Shown one piece after another: positions 53,535 to 64,000 of a stretch of DNA of 64,000 bases. The notes under the pieces were generated by a model, which was given only the letters and a program-made list of their open reading frames with translations, ran no database searches and was not told where the DNA came from. Position 1 is the stretch's first letter; each line of letters opens with the position of its first letter. The translations under genes were made by a program, and so were the position numbers. Source of the DNA: Thermoleophilia bacterium SCSIO 60948 (GTDB lineage Bacteria > Actinomycetota > Thermoleophilia > Solirubrobacterales > 70-9); contig CP053031.1 of NCBI GenBank assembly GCA_021496505.1, forward strand, positions 3,278,001 to 3,342,000. Direction: 5' to 3'.

Positions 53535-54566
53535 GTGCAAACGATCGTTCACAAGTTCCCGCATCGGCGCGCTGGCCACTGCGGCTCGGGAGCGCTGCGC
53601 GACCTGCTCGAGTTCCACGGCCTGAGCTACGGCGACGCGGCGCTGCGCGAAGGCGCCGTCTTCGGCCTGTCCGGTGGGCTCGGCTTCTTCTACGCCGCGC
53701 TGGCGGGCATCCAGCCGCCCGTCTACCTCGTCGGCCGGACCGCCGATCTCGAGCGGGACTTCTGCTCGCACGTCGGCGTCGACCTCGACCTGCGCCAGAC
53801 CGATGATCCGGACGAAGGCTGGGCGGTGCTGCGCGGCGAGCTCGATGCCGGTCGCCCGACGATGGTCTGGGCGGACATCAAGCACCTGGACTACCTGCGG
53901 GTGCGGATGCACAACACGATGCACGACATCGTCGTCTGCGGCTACGACCTCGAGGACGGCGTCGCCTTCGTGGCCGACAACGACCGCGACGACCTGCAGC
54001 GCTGCTCGCTGGAGTCCCTCGCACGGGCCCGAAACTCGGCGGCGTTCCCCGGGCCGAACCGGCACGCGACGTGGGTGATGAGCTGGCCGTCGGAGCTGCC
54101 GGCAGCGCGCGCCGTCGTCGCGCGCGCGATCGAGCGGGCGGTGGAGAACATGGCCGGCCCGGCTCAGCCGGTACTCGCCGGAACGGGCGCCGGGGGGCTC
54201 GCCGGCGTGGACCTCTTCGCCGGCGAGTACGAGGGATGGCCCGACCAGTTCGGCGACGACCTCGGCGCGGTGCTGCGCGGGCTGGCGGTGTTCATCGTCA
54301 AGGCGGGCACCGCCGGGGCGATGTTCCGGTCGCTGCACGCGGACTTCCTGTTCGACGCGGCCCGGTGGCTCGACGACGAGCAACTCGACGAGCTCGGCGC
54401 GACGTATGCGGCGCTCAGCGAGCGTTGGCGGCTGCTGGCCGCCGCCGTCAACGGCGAGGACGATCCGGTCGCGGCACACGCCGCGGGTCGCGACCATGTC
54501 GCGCACATCGCCGGGCTCGAGCACCGCGGCGTCGAGGAGATGCAGGCGTGGCTGGCGACGCGCTGA
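53535..54566 (+). CDS. BtrH_N/DUF4872 acyltransferase-like protein
   Basis: A 343-residue protein. The BtrH_N domain (about 8-145) has FPHRRAGHCGSGALRDLLEF (conserved His15-Cys16) and GAVFGLSGGLGFFYAALAG, and the DUF4872 domain follows (about 165-335) with VFIVKAGTAGAMFRSLHADF. BtrH in butirosin synthesis transfers an acyl group from a carrier protein, so an acyl transfer or peptidase-like reaction is expected; it is not proven here. GTG 53535 is the start, and a family-A site overlaps the first codons. A thioesterase follows with a 19-base overlap. A second copy of the pair is at 60967-62426. Confidence 0.8.
   Translation: MQTIVHKFPHRRAGHCGSGALRDLLEFHGLSYGDAALREGAVFGLSGGLGFFYAALAGIQPPVYLVGRTADLERDFCSHVGVDLDLRQTDDPDEGWAVLRGELDAGRPTMVWADIKHLDYLRVRMHNTMHDIVVCGYDLEDGVAFVADNDRDDLQRCSLESLARARNSAAFPGPNRHATWVMSWPSELPAARAVVARAIERAVENMAGPAQPVLAGTGAGGLAGVDLFAGEYEGWPDQFGDDLGAVLRGLAVFIVKAGTAGAMFRSLHADFLFDAARWLDDEQLDELGATYAALSERWRLLAAAVNGEDDPVAAHAAGRDHVAHIAGLEHRGVEEMQAWLATR
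53537..53552. promoter_or_regulatory. Family-A operator overlapping the BtrH_N start
   Basis: GCAAACGATCGTTCAC covers codons 1-6 of the BtrH_N gene and has the perfect core AACGATCGTT. Binding here would block initiation or transcription. Confidence 0.55.
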
Positions 54567-55033
54567 CCACGCCGGACGGCTGGTTCCGGCCGCACCAGCC
54601 GAACTGCCTGGGCTGTGGCGATGAGAACCCGCTGGGGCTGCGGCTGCGCATGCGGCCGCGAGGCGAGGGAGTCAGCGGCGAGGTCACGTTCCGGCCCGAG
54701 CACGAGGGTGCGCCCGGCTTCGCGCACGGTGGCGCGGTGGCGACGGCGCTCGACGACGCGTTCGGGATGATGCTCGTCAAGCTCGGGCTTCCGGCGGTCA
54801 CGGCGCGGCTGGAGGTCGACTACCGGCGGCCGGTGTTCGTCGGGCGCCCGTACACGGTCCGCGCCGAGTGCGAGCGGCGCGAGCGTCGGAAGCTGTGGCT
54901 GGAAGCGGGGCTCCTCGAGGGCGGCGTCGTCGCGGCAGCGGCGCAAGCGCTGTTCGTGCGCGTCGACGAGCGCCACTTCCTCCAGGGACGCGAGCACGCG
55001 TCCGACGGAGGACAGCGGCGCCTGCCGTGGTGA
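54548..55033 (+). CDS. Hotdog-fold acyl-CoA thioesterase (PaaI-like)
   Basis: A 161-residue hotdog protein. NCLGCGDENPLGLRLRM is the N-terminal motif common in PaaI/THEM-like thioesterases, and GAPGFAHGGAVATALDDAFG carries the HGG and Asp active-site region. ARLEVDYRRPVFVGRPYTV is the following strand. GTG 54548 overlaps the BtrH_N stop by 19 bases. It likely frees acyl groups from CoA or from a carrier and works with the BtrH_N protein. Confidence 0.85.
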   Translation: MAGDALTTPDGWFRPHQPNCLGCGDENPLGLRLRMRPRGEGVSGEVTFRPEHEGAPGFAHGGAVATALDDAFGMMLVKLGLPAVTARLEVDYRRPVFVGRPYTVRAECERRERRKLWLEAGLLEGGVVAAAAQALFVRVDERHFLQGREHASDGGQRRLPW

Positions 55034-55039
55034 CCGTCG

Positions 55040-55985
55040 TCACGGCGGGTCCCGCAGCAGGGGGACGTAGGCGCCGCGCTTGTCGCGGAAGGCTTGCGGC
55101 CGCTGAGTCAGGCAGGGAGGCGATGGGCCCGTGGCCGGGACGTCTGGCGGTTCGACGTATGCGCACAACTGAACGACTCGAGCGCGCCGGGGAGGCGGTC
55201 GAGCCAGCGCGGCGCCGGATAGGCGTTCGAGCGGTTCGTGGGCTCGCGATCACGATAGAGGAGGAAGTTCTCCTTGTTGATCGGCAGCAGGCCGCGGGCA
55301 TAGTGCAGCGGCGGACGCCCCGGTCGCGGCTCGGACGCCTGGAAGAAGCTCGCCGTGTTCGCCCACGAGGCGATGATCTCCTGGCGGTCGCGAGCAAGGT
55401 ACTCGGTCACGGGGACGATCTCGCGCCCGAGCGGATGCAGCTGCCCCAGCAACGGCCGTGCCGCGCGCAGCAGCCGATCGGCGGCCGGCAGCGCCGTCGA
55501 AGAGGTGTCGATGTTCCGGTCCAACCGCCGCAGGGTCGCACCGAGGTCCTGGACCGCTGCGGCCAGATCGTGGAGCGTCGGGCGGACCAGCGGCGCGACC
55601 GGCAGCAGCGCCCGGACGACCGGCCGCCCGGCGCGCGAGGTCGCCTGGAGCTCGGCCAGCGCCGGGCGCGGGGCGCGCAGGAACGGCGGGAGCTCGCGGA
55701 CGGTCCGGCGCAGCTCGGCGTTGCGCGCCGCGGTCCGTGCCAGGACACTGTCCCCGCTGCGGATCAGACGCTGCACGGCAGTCTCGCGCCGACCGACCGT
55801 CCGGAGCACGACCCCGCCGTCGCGGATCAGGCGCCCCACGACCGCCGATTGGGTGTCGACGCGCGCGAGCAGGCCGCTCGCGTCCTCGGCAAACGGGGCG
55901 GCGTTCGCCACCGCCGCCGACACGTCCGGCCCGCGGCCCCGCACCGCCACCTCCAGCTCGCTCAGCCACGTCCGCAGATCGTGGC
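55040..55985 (-). pseudogene. Mce-family protein, 3' fragment with frameshift
   Basis: Only the C-terminal half of an Mce (MlaD-like) lipid-uptake protein remains. HDLRTWLSELEVAVRGRGPD starts near 55985, and helical heptads follow (DRLLRAARPLLGQLHPLGRE) with IASWANTASFFQA and ENFLLYRDREPTNRSNAYPA. Near 55108 a stop occurs, but RPQAFRDKRGAYVPLLRDPP, the usual Mce end, continues in another frame to 55040. The N-terminal MCE beta domain is absent and replaced at 55985-56000 by part of a kinase-like gene. No ABC or other mce genes are next to it. Confidence 0.7.
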
Positions 55986-55997
55986 GCGTCGGCGGCC

Positions 55998-56203
55998 CCC
56001 GTCTGGGCCGCCTCATGGATGAGCCGCTCGGTCTCGGCACGGAACTCGCGCTCGCCGGACTCGCGTGACGACGCGGCGTTCCCGTGCCACGGCGCCAACG
56101 ACCCGAACGAGCGGAGCACACGCGCCATCCTGGCCGGAACAGCCTCGTCGTAGGCAAGCGCCCGCTCGAGCGGAACGGCAAGGCGTCGGGCGACCTCGGC
56201 AGG
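55998..56203 (-). pseudogene. Cytidylate-kinase-like gene, N-terminal fragment
   Basis: Minus-strand sequence reads PAEVARRLAVPLERALAYDE, a region ending ARVLRSFGSLAPW, and FRAETERLIHEAAQTG. This is like the part after the P-loop in cytidylate kinase-like (PF13189) proteins. It lacks the P-loop itself, and at its 3' end it joins the Mce fragment. The rest of the protein is found on the other strand at 56204-56424. Confidence 0.6.
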
Positions 56204-56424
56204 CGATGCGGGTGCAGGGCATCGACCGGGAGACCGCGCGGCGTCGGCTCCGACAGAGCGACCGGGCTCGCCACGCCTACGCCCGGCACGTGTACGGCAC
56301 CGATCCGCGCGACACCCGGCTCCATCACATCGTGATCGACTCCACGGCCATGGACCGCGCGACGTGTGTCGACCTCCTCACGCTCGCGGCGTTCTCCAGG
56401 TCCGAGCGCCGGGCGCACCGGTGA
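56204..56424 (+). pseudogene. Cytidylate-kinase-like gene, C-terminal fragment
   Basis: Plus-strand sequence reads MRVQGIDRETARRRLRQSDR, ARHAYARHVYGTDPRDTRLH and HIVIDSTAMDRATCVDLLTL, the C-terminal lid and last helices of the same kinase-like family. It begins at the joint near 56203, where the N-terminal fragment starts on the opposite strand. The two pieces together explain one gene broken by an inversion or by two separate joins. Confidence 0.6.
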
Positions 56425-56441
56425 CATGTTCGCTTGCTCGA

Positions 56442-56459
56442 ATGTACCGATCGGCGTAG
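56442..56459. promoter_or_regulatory. Family-B operator-like site
   Basis: ATGTACCGATCGGCGTAG shares AATGTACCGATCGGCG with the site at 63171. It is about 110 bases upstream of the universal stress protein gene. Confidence 0.5.
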
Positions 56460-56567
56460 AATGAGTCGCGAGGCCATGGCATGTCCATCTCTCGCGCGCG
56501 TCTGCCGGCGACTGGTTCCGTCGCCGCCGGCGCTCCGCGGCCCAGCGCCGGCCGAAGGGAACGGAGG

Positions 56568-57078
56568 ATGTTCCGCAGTGTCCTTGTAGCAGGTCGGTGG
56601 GTCTCCCGCCGACGCGGCCGCCGTCGAGCAGGCCGTCGACCTCGCGCTCGGCGAGCACGCGCGGCTGACGCTCCTCGCCGCGCTGCCCGGCCTGCCGGCC
56701 ATGGCCTACCTGGCACCCGTCACCCCCGTCGGCGAGCTGCCCCCCGCCCGTGCGGCATGTGAGACGGTCCTGCGCCAAACCGCCGCCAGCGTACCCGCCG
56801 AGCTGCCGGTCACGACGCTGCTCGTCGAGGGGCCGGCGCGCCGGGCGCTCGTCCGCGAGGCCCGGCGCGGCGGATATGACCTGCTCGTCGTCGGCTCGTC
56901 GACGCGGCGACGGCTGCCGGCAGCGCTGGGCGGAGACCTCGGCGCGGCGCTCGTGCGACGCTGCGCGATCCCGGTCCTCGTGGTCCGCTTCCCGGCGGTC
57001 GAGCCCGTGGCGGCGGCGCCGCAGCCGTCGCCCGTGACCGCGCTTGGCGTCCCGGGGAGACGGCATGCCCGGGCTTGA
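56568..57078 (+). pseudogene. Universal stress protein with one-base frameshift
   Basis: A UspA-fold protein. MFRSVLVA starts at 56568, one extra base follows near 56590, and the rest reads in another frame: GGSPADAAAVEQAVDLALGE, AALPGLPAMAYLAPV, then YDLLVVGSSTRRRLPAALGG and CAIPVLVVRF. The ATP-binding GSxxR-like GSSTRR is present. Because only the first 8 codons are cut off, a downstream start could still give a shortened protein. The next gene starts 14 bases before its stop. Confidence 0.7.
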
Positions 57079-57535
57079 GCCGCGCGCGCTCGACGCGCTC
57101 AGTCAGATGCTCGGGGCGCTGCTGCTGTCGGTCGCGGCCGTGGTCGTCGGTCTGCTCTACGCACTGCTGACGGCGATCGCCAACCGACGGCGCCGGCCGC
57201 CCGCCGCGCCATCTTCGCCGATCGACGGCTATCTCGTCGGCCGGACGGACGATGACGGCGCCGCCCTGTACGTCCTCGACGAGCATGGCGTCCGCCGCAT
57301 CGCCCGGGTTCGCCTGCCGGACGACCTGGCTGCGTCCTCCCATCGGCTCATCGCGCTGCTCCGCCATGGCCGCGCAGGCGCGCCGCCGGCCAAACCCGCG
57401 ACGATGGACATCCGCCTGCCTGAGGACTGGCGCGAGGAAGGGTTCAGCGTGCCGCTGACCACCGCCGCGCCGACCGGTCGACGTCGCCGCCGCGACGGCC
57501 GGCGCGGCATCTCGCCCCGCGCCCGGCGCCGCTGA
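57065..57535 (+). CDS. Single-pass membrane protein, unknown
   Basis: A 156-residue protein with one membrane helix at about 13-38 (LGALLLSVAAVVVGLLYALL), a short basic linker and a soluble domain with GYLVGRTDDDGAALYVLDEH and SSHRLIALLRHGRAG, ending in an Arg-rich tail. No family is recognised. ATG 57065 is inside the USP end. It may be a membrane partner of the USP or an unrelated protein. Confidence 0.55.
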   Translation: MPGLEPRALDALSQMLGALLLSVAAVVVGLLYALLTAIANRRRRPPAAPSSPIDGYLVGRTDDDGAALYVLDEHGVRRIARVRLPDDLAASSHRLIALLRHGRAGAPPAKPATMDIRLPEDWREEGFSVPLTTAAPTGRRRRRDGRRGISPRARRR

Positions 57536-57544
57536 CGATCAGCG
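57530..57544. terminator. Hairpin between convergent genes
   Basis: CGCTGA-CGA-TCAGCG is a perfect 6-base stem overlapping the stop of the membrane protein gene and just before the stop of the TetR gene. Confidence 0.45.
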
Positions 57545-58246: not shown

Positions 58247-58845
58247 ATGGCGACCTCGTCGTTCGATCGCGGGTACCGCTCGCGGGAGGTGCGCCGCCGG
58301 GACTTCGTGGGCGCCCTCGAGCGGCTGCTGGCCGACGGTTGCCGGTTCAGGGAGATCACCGTCCGGCAGCTCGCGGACGAGGTGAGGTTGTCACGCACGG
58401 GGTTCTACTTTCACTTCGGGCACACGCGCGACGTTGTGCTCGCAGCCGCGACGGGCATCTCGGCTGACCTGTACGAGGCCGCAGACACTGGCTCGGCGAC
58501 GACGATGCCGGGTTGGACGGACTGGAGGCAGCGCTGGCCCGGATCGCCGAGGGGTACCGCAGCCATGCCCCCGTGCTGCGGGCGGTGCGCGAGGCCGCCG
58601 CGTACGACGACGCGCTGCGCGCCGAGTGGCGCCGGCTCATCGGGCGCTTCGTCGTCGCCACCCCGGGGCCGGCTCGAACGAGCTACGCCGGGCCAGACGC
58701 GCGGCCTGCAGGCGGCCGCGCTCGTCTGGATGACCGAGCGCACGCTTCTCGAGCAGGTGGCGACCGACGGCGACGATCCGCACAGGTCTCCGCCGCTTTG
58801 GCGCGCATCCGGTGGGCGGCGCTCGCCGGGCGGGACTCGGGGTAG
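58247..58845 (+). pseudogene. TetR-family regulator with several frameshifts
   Basis: The HTH is intact in the first frame: FREITVRQLADEVRLSRTGF and YFHFGHTRDVVLAAATG. After about 58500 the sequence moves to a second frame (LEAALARIAEGYRSHAPVLR). Near 58665 it moves to a third (GLQAAALVWMTERTLLEQVA), and near 58780 it shifts again to SAALARIRWAALAGRDSG. The order of parts matches the TetR at 20079 (VWMTERTL). It is a real decayed gene or a badly resolved stretch. Confidence 0.7.
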
Positions 58846-59064: not shown

Positions 59065-60920
59065 CTAGAGCCGCCGGACGGACAGGACCTCCTGGTCGGC
59101 ATCGCCGCCCGCCGATGCCTGGACAACGACGCGGACGTCCCCACGGCCGATGCGCTCGGCCGGCACGCGCAGGCGGACGAGCGCACCCGCCCGGACGCGC
59201 CGCGCTGCCAATCGGCGGATGGTCCTCGTGCCCTGCTCGACCCGGACGCGGACGGTCGCCTGCCGCGCGACGCGGAACGCCACGCGCAGGGGGCGGTTGG
59301 TCCGTCCGCCGAACACCGGGCGTTCGGCCTTGGCCAGGCGCAGCAGCCCGCACGGGTCCGCGGCGGCGAACGTCGGCAGCAGTGCGAACCGTCCGCTTCT
59401 GCGGCGCACCGCAATGCGCCGGACCAATCGACCGTGCCGCAGGCGGACGAGGAACGTCCCGTCGGTGACCCGCCGCCCTCGTCGCGTGGCCCGGCCCCGC
59501 CAGGTGCGCGCCGAGCGACGGAGAGAGAACCGTGCGACCAGGCGGTTTCCAAGGATCCTGCGCCCGCGATCGTGCTGGAAGACGTCGACGCGCACGTTCT
59601 CCAGATCTCGCGGGAGCACGAAGCGCAGCCCGCGCCCGCGCGGGCGGAGCGCAATCCGTTCGAGCGCGGAGCGACGCGCGCACGCGCCGAGCGAGCTGCC
59701 GGCCGAGCCGGCCGGGTCGGAAGCCCGCGCGGGCGGAACGACGACGGGCGTCGGCGCGCCGGCCGTCCGAGCGAGGACCATGCCCTCCGGCCCCGTCCCC
59801 GGGGTGTTCGTGCACGCGAACGATCCGGGCGGCTCGCGGTAGAGCAGGCTCAGGCACGTCCCGATCGCCTGCTGCGCGTACGCGTTGGGGTGGAAGACCT
59901 CCTGGACCTCGCCCTGAGCGATGGCGCCGACACTGAGGGCGCGCCCCCACTCGCTGCGCTCGGGCGAGGGCGGGGAGGCCGGGGTCGCGGCCTGGGCGGT
60001 CTTCGCGCAGATCTCGCGACCCTGTAGCGCGTTGACGAGCTCGAGCACCTCGACGCCTCGCGACCGGGCGGCCGCCTTGCTCACCGCGCCGATCTGCGGC
60101 GCGGCCACGTCGCGCGCCCAGTCCAGGTCGGCGTCGTAGAACGGGCAGCCGTCGCTGGTGCGGCGCGGGTCGGCCTCCGCGTACCGCGCCTCAGCGGCGC
60201 GCGGCATCACCGACGGATACGTCTGCATGACGAGCCGGTAGTCGCCCGGGCCGTAGCCGGCTGCCGCCATCACGGCTCGGATCTCGTCGATCGCACGTTC
60301 GACGTCGGCGATGACGCGCGGCACCAGCGCGTCGATCTGCGCCTGCTGCTCGTCGCGGCACGGACCACTGCGTGTCTCGTAGGCGAGGAAGCAGGCCGTG
60401 ACGATCGAGGCGAAGCCGAGGTCATTGCCGCCGAGCGAGAGAACGATGAGCTTCACGTCGCGATCGCGGGCGATCGGGGCGAGCTGGTCGGCCTGCGGCG
60501 CCTCGCCGTTCTGACCTCGCCGCCGCTCGACGCGCGGTAGATGTTCCTGGTCTGGCCTCCCGAGCAGCTGATGTTGAGCTTCTCGTCGGCAGGGATGCGG
60601 GCGCTGCGGATCTCGGCGACGTCGGAACGATGGCATCCGCTGTCGCTGCCGCCGACGTAGACCCGCGCCGGGTCGTAGGTGCAGGCGAGCGCCGGCAGCA
60701 GCGGCGCGCACGCCCGATCGGTGCCGTCGCGGTCGCCCGCGGGGTTGACCGAGTTGCCCTGCCAGCGACCGGCCTCTCCGGAGATGTAGCTGTCACCCAT
60801 GCTGACCACCGCCGTGTACGACGCCCCCGGACCAGCGAACGCCTCACCGCTCGACGACAGCGCTGCCGTGAGCATGGCCACGGCGACAAGGAGGGTTCGG
60901 GACGAAACGCAGCGGAGCAC
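59065..60920 (-). pseudogene. Secreted SGNH/GDSL hydrolase with one frameshift
   Basis: GTG 60920 starts a signal peptide (LLVAVAMLTAALSSSGEAFA). SGNH block I is VVSMGDSYISGEAGRW with the catalytic Ser, and a disulfide-rich region follows (RACAPLLPALACTYD). Near 60517 one base is changed or lost, and SLGGNDLGFASIVTA (block III Gly/Asn) and VFHPNAYAQQ (block V His) are in the new frame. After about residue 370 an Arg-rich beta-repeat domain extends to the end, with several strand-like repeats (VRVDVFQHD, DGTFLVRLRHG). It is probably an exported esterase or lipase; frameshift or sequencing error leaves activity uncertain. Confidence 0.75.
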
Positions 60921-60923
60921 GCG

Positions 60924-60941
60924 ACGTACCGTACGGCGAAC
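60924..60941. promoter_or_regulatory. Family-B operator upstream of SGNH gene
   Basis: ACGTACCGTACGGCGAAC, one base from the site at 12923, lies directly before the SGNH start. Confidence 0.6.
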
Positions 60942-60966
60942 TTCCCGTGGGCGCGCCGGTCGGCCG

Positions 60967-61458
60967 TCAGGGCGCCACGGGCGTCTCGCCGGACGGCCAA
61001 TCGCGCCAGCGCTCGGGAAGCTCGCGCCCGCCGCGCTGGAAGTGCGCGAGGTCGACCTCCACGAACAGCGCACGGGCACGGGCGATCAGCGTCTCGCCGT
61101 CGCGCAGCTCCCCTTCCAGATGGAGCTTGCGCCCCTCGGCGCGGTCGCACCATGCCTCGACGTCGAGCTCGCGCTCGAGGAACGCCGGCGCCCGGTAGTC
61201 GACCTCGAGCCGCGCGGTCACGGCCGGGCGCCGGACGAGGATCAGCACGGTCCCGAGCGCGTCGTCCAGAACCGTCGCGACCGCGCCGCCGTGCGCGAAG
61301 CCGGGCGCGCCCTCCTGCCGGCGGTCGAAGCGCACGCGCCCGCGCACCCGCTCGCCGACGACCTGCATGCGCAGGCCCATGCTCGCCGGATTCTCCGGCC
61401 CGCACCCGAGGCAGTGGGGCTGGTGGGCGGGGACGATCCCGTCCGCTTCGGGCATCAT
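60967..61458 (-). CDS. Hotdog-fold acyl-CoA thioesterase, second copy
   Basis: A 163-residue paralogue of the thioesterase at 54548: HCLGCGPENPASMGLRM, GAPGFAHGGAVATVLDDALG and ARLEVDYRAPAFLERELDV match the same motifs in the same order. ATG 61458 overlaps the stop of the BtrH_N paralogue (ATGA), so the pair is coupled as in the first module. It is 46 bases from the SGNH start downstream, which may be cotranscribed. Confidence 0.87.
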   Translation of the reverse strand: MMPEADGIVPAHQPHCLGCGPENPASMGLRMQVVGERVRGRVRFDRRQEGAPGFAHGGAVATVLDDALGTVLILVRRPAVTARLEVDYRAPAFLERELDVEAWCDRAEGRKLHLEGELRDGETLIARARALFVEVDLAHFQRGGRELPERWRDWPSGETPVAP

Positions 61459-62426
61459 GCGGCGGTCTCCGTCCACCGCTCCATCCGGTCGACCCCGTCG
61501 GCCTCCAGCCGCGCGATTTGCGCGACGGCCGGGACGCCCGCCACGTGTGCGAGGGCGGCATCGTCGCTCTCGGAGATCCGCGCGAGCTCGCCGTACGTCT
61601 CGGCCAGCTCGTCGTAGACAGCGCCGATCCGCGCGAGTTCCGCGTCATCGAGCAGGCCCGCGGCGTCGTGCAGGAACGTCGCGTGCAGCGACCGGAACAT
61701 CGCGCCGCCCGTCCCGGCCTTGACGATGAACACGCGCAGGCCACGCATCGCCGCCGGCAGGTCCTCGCCGAACGTGGCCGGCCAGCGCTCGTAGCCGGCC
61801 GCGAAGGCGTCCGCGCCAGCAAGCCCGGTCTGTCCGGCCAGACCGGCAAGCGCCTCGCCGCCGTCGCCGCGCATGTTGCCGACCGCCCGCGCGATCGCGT
61901 CCTGCAGCGCCTCGCGCGGCGGCCGGAGCGGGCCGGCGAAGCTGTAGGGGAACATCCGGTTGCGGTTCGGGCCCGGGAACCCGTCGGAGTTCCGCGCGGC
62001 CGCGAGCGAGTCCAGCGAACAACGCTGAAGCTCCTCGCGGTCGTTGTCGGCGACCAGCGCGACACCCTCGCGCTCGTCGTAGTCGACGACGACGACGTCG
62101 TGGCGCCTGTTGTGCATCCGCACGCGCAGGTCCTCGAGGCGGCCGATGTCCGCCCACACCATCGGCGGTGTGCCCGCGTCGACCTGCTCCTTGACCCAGG
62201 CCCACGCCCGCCTGTCGTCGCCGGTCCCGCGCACGTCGAGCGGGAGCCCGAGGTGCGAGGCGACGTCGATCTCGAGGTCGGCGGTGCGCCCGACGAGGAA
62301 CTCGAGCAGATCACGCAGCGCACCCGAGCCGCAGTGCCCCGCCTTGCGGTGCGGGAACCGGCGGCTCGCGACGGCAGGGTCCGCGTCGCGACGGTCAGCG
62401 GGGGCCGCCGGTCTCTCGTCGTTCAT
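61455..62426 (-). CDS. BtrH_N/DUF4872 paralogue with internal deletion
   Basis: A 323-residue paralogue of the protein at 53535. FPHRKAGHCGSGALRDLLEF is kept, but the next 37 residues of the copy at 53535, which include FGLSGGLGFFYAALAG, are missing and the frame continues at LVGRTADLE. The DUF4872 part (VFIVKAGTGGAMFRSLHATF) is intact. The lost segment forms the core after the His-Cys pair, so acyl transfer may be lost or altered. A perfect 22-base palindrome is at 62445-62466 upstream. Confidence 0.8.
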   Translation of the reverse strand: MNDERPAAPADRRDADPAVASRRFPHRKAGHCGSGALRDLLEFLVGRTADLEIDVASHLGLPLDVRGTGDDRRAWAWVKEQVDAGTPPMVWADIGRLEDLRVRMHNRRHDVVVVDYDEREGVALVADNDREELQRCSLDSLAAARNSDGFPGPNRNRMFPYSFAGPLRPPREALQDAIARAVGNMRGDGGEALAGLAGQTGLAGADAFAAGYERWPATFGEDLPAAMRGLRVFIVKAGTGGAMFRSLHATFLHDAAGLLDDAELARIGAVYDELAETYGELARISESDDAALAHVAGVPAVAQIARLEADGVDRMERWTETAA

Positions 62427-62489: not shown

Positions 62490-63110
62490 TCACCGCGACC
62501 CGAGCAGGAGACCAGCGCCAGGCCGACGGCCAGACCGACCGACACCCAGCGAAGGACCCACGTCAGCGGCGGCGCCGGGGCAGCGGCCTGCGCCGAGCGT
62601 CGCGGTCGCGGTCGGGTGGCGGCGACACGCTCGTAAGCGGCTGGGCGTGTCCTGGGCGATCGCCGCCACGTCGATCTCGCGCTTGACGATCTTGCCGGTC
62701 GGGCCCTTCGGCAGCTCGCTCACGCACACGACCTGCCGCGGGTACTTGTAGGCGGCCACGCGATTCTTGGCCCACGCCCGCAGCTCCTCCGCGCCGGTGT
62801 CCGCGTCCGGGCGCAGCACCACCATCGCCACCACCTCCTCGCCCAGCTCGGCGTGCGGCACGCCGACCACCGCGGCTTCGAGCACCGCGGGGTGCTCGTA
62901 CAGCACCTCCTCGATCTCGCGCGGGTAGACGTTGTAGCCGCCTCGGATGATGAGGTCCTTCTTGCGGTCGACAGTGAAGACGAAGCCGTCCTCGTCCACC
63001 CGCGCCATGTCGCCGGTCCGGAACCAGCCCTGCGGCGAGATGGCCTCCGCGGTCGCGTCGGGACGGCCGTGGTAGCCGCACATGACGTTGTGGCCGCGCG
63101 GCGAGGTTGA
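62490..63110 (-). pseudogene. Acyl-CoA synthetase, 3' remnant
   Basis: Only the C-terminal part of an ANL (AMP-forming) acyl-CoA ligase remains: RGHNVMCGYHGRPDATAEAI, GWFRTGDMARVDEDGFVFTV, DRKKDLIIRGGYNVYPREIE and LPKGPTGKIVKREID (catalytic Lys). The P-loop and the N-terminal 350 or so residues are missing before about 63105. The open frame runs past the expected end into unrelated codons to 62490. The ORF can be extended upstream to 63212, but that part lies in an operator region and is not coding. Confidence 0.8.
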
Positions 63111-63171
63111 GTCACAGCGGTTCTCCGGCGGTCGGGAGGCATCCAAGCGGTCCGGCGGCCGCCCGTCCGCA

Positions 63172-63189
63172 ATGTACCGATCGGCGAGT
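63172..63189. promoter_or_regulatory. Family-B operator-like site upstream of MMPL gene
   Basis: ATGTACCGATCGGCGAGT shares 16 bases with the site at 56442. It lies 53 bases before the MMPL start and 62 bases before the ligase remnant. Confidence 0.5.
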
Positions 63190-63241
63190 TCGCTGATAGC
63201 GTGTCGGCGCATGAACCGTCACCGCACACACCCCGACTGAC

Positions 63242-64000
63242 GTGTTCTCGCGACTGGGCAGCGCGGTCACCGCGCATCCGTGGCGCGTCATCGCGGTGTG
63301 GATCATCGCGGTTGCGATCACCGTGCCGCTCTCCCCCGGTCTGGGCGCGGTCACGAACGAGGACCAGACGAGCTTCCTGCCCTCGGACTACGAATCGGTC
63401 CGAGCCGACGAGCTGGCCCGGGAGGCGTTTCCGGAGCAGTCCGGGTCGACCGCGCTGTTCGTCGTCCGCCGCCAGGACGGGGCCGCGCTCACCGCCCCCG
63501 ACCGCCGGCAGATCGCCGAGCTCGTCCAAGACCTCGAGGGCAGCCGCATCGAGCGCGTCCGCGGCGTGCAGACAGGACCGGAGCAGCTGTCACCCGACCG
63601 GCGCGTCCAGCTCGTCGCGGTCGCCCTCGAGGGCCTGCCGAGCGACGACCCTGTCGCCGAGGCCGTCGACCGGCTGCGAGCGGCGGGCGATGAGGCGCTC
63701 GCCGGAAGCGGGCTTCAGGCCGGCGTGACCGGCGACGCCGCGATCCTCAAGGACACGCGGGAATCCTACCGCGACGCCGAGGGGATCGTCGGGATCGCGA
63801 CGGTCGTCCTCATCATCGCGCTGCTCGGCGCGATCTACCGCAGTCCGCTCGCCGCCCTCATGCCGATCGTGTCGATCGGACTCGTCTACGCGACGGCGAC
63901 CTCGCTCATCGCCCTCGTCGCCGACGTCGCCGGGTTCGAGGTCAGCCCCGAACTGACGTCGCTGCTCATCGTCGTGCTCTTCGGCATCGGCACCGACTAC
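63242..64000 (+). CDS. MMPL/RND-family transporter (5' part)
   Basis: First 253 codons of an RND-superfamily MMPL protein; the rest is beyond the right edge. The N-terminal helix is VIAVWIIAVAITVPLSPGLG (about 16-35), a porter domain follows with FLPSDYESVRADELAREAFP and FPEQSGSTALFVV, and then helices 2-4 with IVGIATVVLIIALLGAIY and FGIGTDY (GTDY proton-relay motif begin). GTG 63242 is the start. MMPL proteins export lipids or siderophores. A family-B operator is upstream. Confidence 0.9.
   Translation, partial: MFSRLGSAVTAHPWRVIAVWIIAVAITVPLSPGLGAVTNEDQTSFLPSDYESVRADELAREAFPEQSGSTALFVVRRQDGAALTAPDRRQIAELVQDLEGSRIERVRGVQTGPEQLSPDRRVQLVAVALEGLPSDDPVAEAVDRLRAAGDEALAGSGLQAGVTGDAAILKDTRESYRDAEGIVGIATVVLIIALLGAIYRSPLAALMPIVSIGLVYATATSLIALVADVAGFEVSPELTSLLIVVLFGIGTDY

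What the first reader, a model, noticed from the sequence alone, without database searches (positions are those of the whole stretch)
55040..56424. Cytidylate-kinase-like gene split into opposite orientations and fused to an Mce fragment
The kinase-like N-part reads on the minus strand (56203-55998) and the C-part on the plus strand (56204-56424), meeting at 56203. The N-part then runs into the second half of an Mce gene near 55985-56000. Two independent breakpoints within 1.4 kb show past inversion or double recombination.
Basis: partly seen in the sequence, partly recalled or inferred. Interest (0 to 1): 0.6.

Follow-up and report, generated by a model that had tools for sequence, protein, structure and literature searches.

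The report
Scar of two broken genes
A short stretch of an actinobacterial chromosome holds pieces of a kinase-like gene, one of them flipped, joined to the back half of an Mce (lipid-transport-type) gene: very probably a real but ordinary rearrangement scar that leaves dead gene fragments.

Summary
A profile of 21 homologues of the kinase-like gene (family PF13189) finds two pieces in the window, both far above chance: a middle piece on the minus strand (about 55994-56203, profile positions about 33-102 of 205) and the C-terminal piece on the plus strand (56200-56424, positions 132-203). The minus-strand piece abuts, out of frame, the C-terminal half of an Mce gene (55995 to 55040), of the type that stands last in the mce run in all 10 operons examined. 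The missing kinase parts and an orphan Mce N-half were not found elsewhere in the single-contig genome, so there is no reciprocal joint: this is an inversion with losses. Joint 1 shares at least 4 bases with both parents; joint 2 is blunt or nearly so. Most likely an in-vivo deletion-inversion-deletion scar (one template-switching event, or a short inversion followed by a deletion) in a decaying region; no functional product is expected. Assembly error is not excluded without reads. Low interest.

The parts
55040..55995 (-). C-terminal half of an Mce-family gene (of the type that stands last in mce operons), 5' half missing, frameshift near 55141-55153, stop 55040-55042
   Evidence: profile 160-445 of 480, 301.9 bits, plus tail 442-480 in another frame; TIGR00996 from position 151; 46% identity to the closest relative over 284 aa; stop
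55990..55997 (.). joint 2: kinase middle piece to Mce half, blunt or with 0-6 shared bases, at most 4 unassigned bases; reading frames differ
   Evidence: alignments; frames
55994..56203 (-). middle piece of the kinase-like gene, inverted relative to the C-piece
   Evidence: 37.7 bits, iE 9.8e-11, profile 31-102 of 205; tblastn E down to about 1e-9 against homologues
56197..56203 (.). joint 1: inverted joint; the four bases 56200-56203 fit both sides, up to seven if the preceding codon is ancestral
   Evidence: alignment and residue counts at the flanking columns
56200..56424 (+). C-terminal piece of the kinase-like gene with its own stop codon
   Evidence: PF13189 33.1 bits; 89.2 bits to the homologue profile; 58-60% identity to the gene of G218 / Patulibacter medicamentivorans
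56568..57078 (+). universal stress protein gene downstream, reading frame broken near its start
   Evidence: Usp profile positions 17-141 in one frame, the first residues in another

Best explanation
This is a deletion-inversion-deletion scar of illegitimate recombination. Shown: a kinase-like gene (PF13189 type) is reduced to an inverted block of about 208 bases from its middle and a C-terminal piece; the inverted block abuts the 3' half of an Mce gene of the operon-terminal type; and the parts between were not found elsewhere in the genome. Inferred: an mce operon once ran leftward and the kinase gene rightward, side by side; the DNA between the Mce middle and the kinase C-piece was lost except for the small block, which was copied or rejoined the wrong way round at matches of a few bases. 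This fits a single replication-linked event with two template switches (as in the FoSTeS/MMBIR models) or a short inversion inside the kinase gene followed by a deletion. The remnants lack the kinase's glycine-rich loop and the Mce domain and share no reading frame, so they are expected to be dead DNA in a decaying region.
For: Two-piece profile match on opposite strands and collinearity in homologues. With a full-length homologue as query at E<=10 only these two pieces were found in the genome. 18 MlaD domains form three groups of six elsewhere, none orphaned. The Mce type stands last in its run in 10 of 10 operons examined. At least 4 shared bases at joint 1, given residues conserved in 17 of 21 and 18 of 21 homologues at the flanking columns; the chance of 4 or more is about 0.03. 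Neighbouring genes also show decay.
Against: No close relative with the intact arrangement was found, so the ancestral neighbourhood is inferred: none of 80 kinase loci has this Mce half within its flanks at E<=1e-4. Joint 2 shows no firm microhomology. The genome is one assembly and reads were not available; short-range inverted joins with a deletion are also what amplification chimeras look like (PMC1855051, abstract).
Confidence: 0.78

Rival explanations
1. Assembly or amplification chimera: the inverted joint does not exist in the cell.
For: Inverted sequences with an intervening deletion and a few complementary bases are the dominant chimera type of multiple displacement amplification (PMC1855051, abstract). 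Several neighbouring genes have broken frames, which could also mean a poor consensus here.
Against: The genome is a single 3.42 Mb contig; a false join of reads from intact genes should leave the missing halves somewhere, and a full-length kinase query and an MlaD search found none. rpoB lies in one open frame of 1203 aa. Two separate joints would both have to be false.
Confidence: 0.13
2. Within the in-vivo reading, two separate historical events rather than one: first an inversion inside the kinase gene, later a deletion that ran from the Mce gene into the already broken kinase. (This confidence overlaps with that of the best explanation, which leaves one or two events open.)
For: Gives exactly the same product; joint 1 shares 4-7 bases in inverted sense, joint 2 is blunt or nearly so, so the joints may differ in kind.
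Against: Needs two rare events within about 200 bases; nothing in the sequence separates it from one complex event.
Confidence: 0.4
3. A decayed intragenic inverton (recombinase-driven switching segment).
For: An inverted segment inside a gene with a few complementary bases at one end.
Against: No inverted repeat of 8 bases or more between 55900-56060 and 56140-56300; no recombinase among the window proteins matched to Pfam between 39 and 64 kb (selected ORFs, not all); the segment cannot switch back because its partner sequences are gone. Homologues show no more complementarity at these two sites than random pairs of sites in the same genes (mean 4.1 against 4.4).
Confidence: 0.03
4. The pieces came in separately by horizontal transfer and were never neighbours.
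For: No other genome of the window's own family is among the matches to the kinase piece in the class sample (25 of 399 genomes matched, own included), and this Mce half is not in the flanks of any of 80 kinase loci.
Against: Middle and C-piece are parts of one gene type and do not overlap, which is most simply one gene broken in place.
Confidence: 0.1

Closest known systems
Microhomology-associated complex rearrangements (FoSTeS/MMBIR models; review PMC9199198, passages read)
   Same: Deletion and inversion together, joints with a few shared bases, no reciprocal product found.
   Different: Described there for human chromosomes; here inferred from a single bacterial assembly, only one joint shows firm shared bases, and there is no ancestral sequence to compare.
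PF13189 Cytidylate_kin2 (cytidylate kinase-like family; solved relatives 3hdt and 3fdi)
   Same: The two pieces are homologous to the middle and the C-terminal end of this family.
   Different: The N-terminus with its glycine-rich loop and the stretch between the pieces are missing and the pieces lie on opposite strands: a pseudogene.
Mce family (TIGR00996), last gene of mce operons
   Same: C-terminal half aligns at 46% identity over 284 residues with the closest relative.
   Different: N-terminal half with the MlaD domain missing, tail frameshifted, rest of the operon absent from the locus.
Amplification chimeras (PMC1855051, abstract)
   Same: Inverted sequence with intervening deletion and short complementarity.
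   Different: Here in a single-contig assembly in which the missing halves were not found; reads needed to decide.

Membership tests
PF13189 Cytidylate_kin2 | profile match over the curated cut-off | tested here: met
   C-piece 33.1 bits, cut-off 28; middle piece not found by the Pfam model on its own
PF13189 Cytidylate_kin2 | complete domain with the glycine-rich N-terminal loop | tested here: not met
   about 30 positions at the start and about 30 between the pieces missing at the locus and not found elsewhere in the genome; that this loop binds nucleotide is recalled
Mce family (TIGR00996 / PF02470) | MlaD (Mce) domain in the N-terminal half | tested here: not met
   no PF02470 match near the window; the 18 matches in the genome lie at 0.56-0.57 and 2.57-2.60 Mb
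Mce family (TIGR00996 / PF02470) | Mce family C-terminal region | tested here: met
   301.9 bits to a profile of relatives; TIGR00996 36.6 bits from position 151, which is below the whole-protein cut-off of 140.5
Intragenic inverton | inverted repeats at both ends of the segment | tested here: not met
   none of 8 bases or more in the flanks searched
Intragenic inverton | both orientations present in a population | not testable with these tools
   needs reads
MMBIR/FoSTeS-type event | microhomology at the joints | tested here: inconclusive
   joint 1 at least 4 bases (chance about 0.03), joint 2 0-6 bases
MMBIR/FoSTeS-type event | no reciprocal product | tested here: met
   missing kinase parts and an orphan Mce N-half not found

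The most novel reading that the evidence does not exclude
One replication-linked event with two template switches in a bacterium deleted most of an mce operon, kept a block of about 208 bases of the neighbouring kinase gene in reverse and resumed on the kinase gene: a readable deletion-inversion-deletion scar in a bacterial chromosome.
Probability: 0.35. Interest if true: 0.25.

Novelty: new member of a known kind. Interest (0 to 1): 0.13.

Why it matters
As an instance it shows how gene remnants of opposite orientation can arise and mislead annotation. If reads confirm it and a sister strain gives the ancestral order, it would be a small clean case of a complex rearrangement in an actinobacterium. 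It says nothing new about kinases or Mce transport.

Tried and rejected
Reading the C-piece in the wrong frame (56205-56420) gave no family and a meaningless translation; corrected. A DNA search of 54900-57540 in 50 genomes of the family gave hits in 31 of 50, the own genome included; outside the own locus they were short (under 100 bases) and no listed row spanned either joint. The only other genome of the genus is 54% complete, so its lack of the locus tells nothing. The idea that kinase and mce operon are regular neighbours was not supported: in 10 kinase regions of relatives and in 80 loci (the best 80 of 182 found; searched) none had this Mce half; only a generic TetR match recurred, in 23 of 80. 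The idea that the two joint-1 sites are complementary in homologues, which would make the inversion likely, was not supported. Paper searches for such rearrangements in bacteria, for the family name, for intragenic inversion and for amplification chimeras listed nothing that I recognised as this locus; I saw listings only, except the abstract of PMC1855051, passages of PMC9199198 and the abstract of PMC8604942. Of the 22 loci with a C-piece match, L055 was left out of the homologue alignment because no kinase start motif was found; L050 is a distant member that was kept, and two pairs in that alignment (L041/L042, L057/L058) are identical in sequence.

Full report
Setting. The window is bases 3278001-3342000 of a single-contig genome of 3.42 Mb, 97.65% complete. 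GC content around the locus is 73-75%, so open frames on any strand mean little by themselves, and I relied on profiles.

The kinase pieces. The C-terminal piece (plus, 56200-56424) matches PF13189, Cytidylate kinase-like family, at 33.1 bits over a cut-off of 28. In a sample of 399 genomes of the class, 25 (the own one included) hold a match at E<=1e-3; no other genome of the own family is among them, and the best is 58% identical. I built a profile from 21 of the 22 loci whose genes matched this C-piece (L055 was dropped). This profile, whose members were selected without the middle piece, finds the middle piece on the minus strand at 37.7 bits (iE 9.8e-11, profile 31-102 of 205) and the C-piece at 89.2 bits (132-203), and nothing else among 965 six-frame frames of the window; the best of 2000 shuffles of the middle piece reached 8.5 bits against 41.5. 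In homologues both pieces lie on one strand in the usual order wherever the middle piece was detectable: 11 of 28 loci, and 8 of 80 in a wider set at a stricter threshold. So the gene has been broken and one part turned.

The Mce half. On the minus strand from about 55995 the sequence follows an Mce profile from position 160 of 480 (301.9 bits), with 46% identity to the nearest relative over 284 residues and a TIGR00996 match beginning at position 151 of 291. The last 39 profile positions are in a different frame (frame 55249-55043), so the remnant is also frameshifted, and it ends with TGA at 55040-55042. Genes of this type scored highest and stood last in the run of mce genes in 10 of 10 operons examined, eight in relatives and two in the own genome, some of them cut by contig or stretch ends. 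What stands in the window is therefore most likely the 3' end of an mce operon whose other parts are absent here.

Where the rest is. The own genome has 18 MlaD domains in three groups of six and four MlaE permease matches far from the window; none is an orphan next to a kinase piece. A full-length kinase homologue finds only the two pieces described, at E<=10; the second match, query 14-115, runs past joint 1, as local alignments can. There is thus no sign of a reciprocal joint, and a plain inversion is not enough: DNA was lost.

The joints. At joint 1 the residue that starts the middle piece is P in 17 of 21 homologues and the residue that starts the C-piece is Q in 18 of 21; both codons are kept and overlap, so at least the four bases 56200-56203 fit both sides. 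Including the codon before, it would be seven, but that residue is R in only 2 of 21. In this window two random joins share four or more bases with probability about 0.03 and seven or more about 0.0016. At joint 2 the kinase is certain to about 55997 and Mce from about 55992; the bases between fit either or both, so the shared length is 0-6 and any insert at most 4 bases. The reading frames differ across joint 2, so no fused protein results.

Mechanism. The order Mce half (minus), middle piece (minus), C-piece (plus) with the intervening parts gone is a deletion-inversion-deletion pattern if the mce operon and the kinase gene were divergent neighbours. That ancestral order is an inference: none of 80 kinase loci from other bacteria has this Mce half in its flanks. 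One event with two template switches, or an inversion within the kinase gene followed by a deletion, explain the product equally well. The review PMC9199198 (passages) describes microhomology and joined segments as marks of FoSTeS and MMBIR, and notes that mechanisms cannot always be told from the breakpoint; its cases are human. A recombinase-driven inverton is disfavoured.

Artefact. Amplification chimeras are mostly inverted sequences with intervening deletions, often with 2-21 complementary bases (PMC1855051, abstract), so the structure alone cannot exclude one. Against it speak the absence of the missing halves from the contig and an intact rpoB frame. Reads are needed.

Surroundings. Several neighbours also look broken: the stress-protein gene, a TetR gene split over two frames, one copy of a BtrH-like gene with 37 residues missing relative to the other, and an AMP-binding enzyme of which Pfam sees only the C-terminal domain. 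This fits a decaying stretch, though a poor consensus would look similar for the frameshifts. Overall: very probably a real, ordinary scar.

Noticed in passing
53556-55033 (+) and 60967-62426 (-): Inverted duplication of a BtrH-like gene plus a 4HBT thioesterase gene, about 74% identical in the longer DNA blocks; the second BtrH copy lacks 37 residues inside.
   Followed up: partly
56568-57078 (+): Universal stress protein gene whose first residues are in a different frame from the rest.
   Followed up: partly
58248-58845 (+): TetR-type regulator that seems split over two frames: weak TetR_N in one, weak EthR_C in the other.
   Followed up: partly
59065-61079 (-): GDSL-type esterase whose start appears to lie in another frame than the rest (ORFs; weak Lipase_GDSL_2 match).
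   Followed up: partly
62490-63212 (-): AMP-binding enzyme of which Pfam matches only the C-terminal domain, abutting an MMPL gene on the other strand at 63242.
   Followed up: partly
G000:C1:561256-570679, 2573395-2581834, 2597498-2604499 (outside the window): Three six-gene mce runs, while only two MlaE permease pairs were found, at 842 kb and 2605 kb; the pair at 842 kb is far from any mce run.
   Followed up: no
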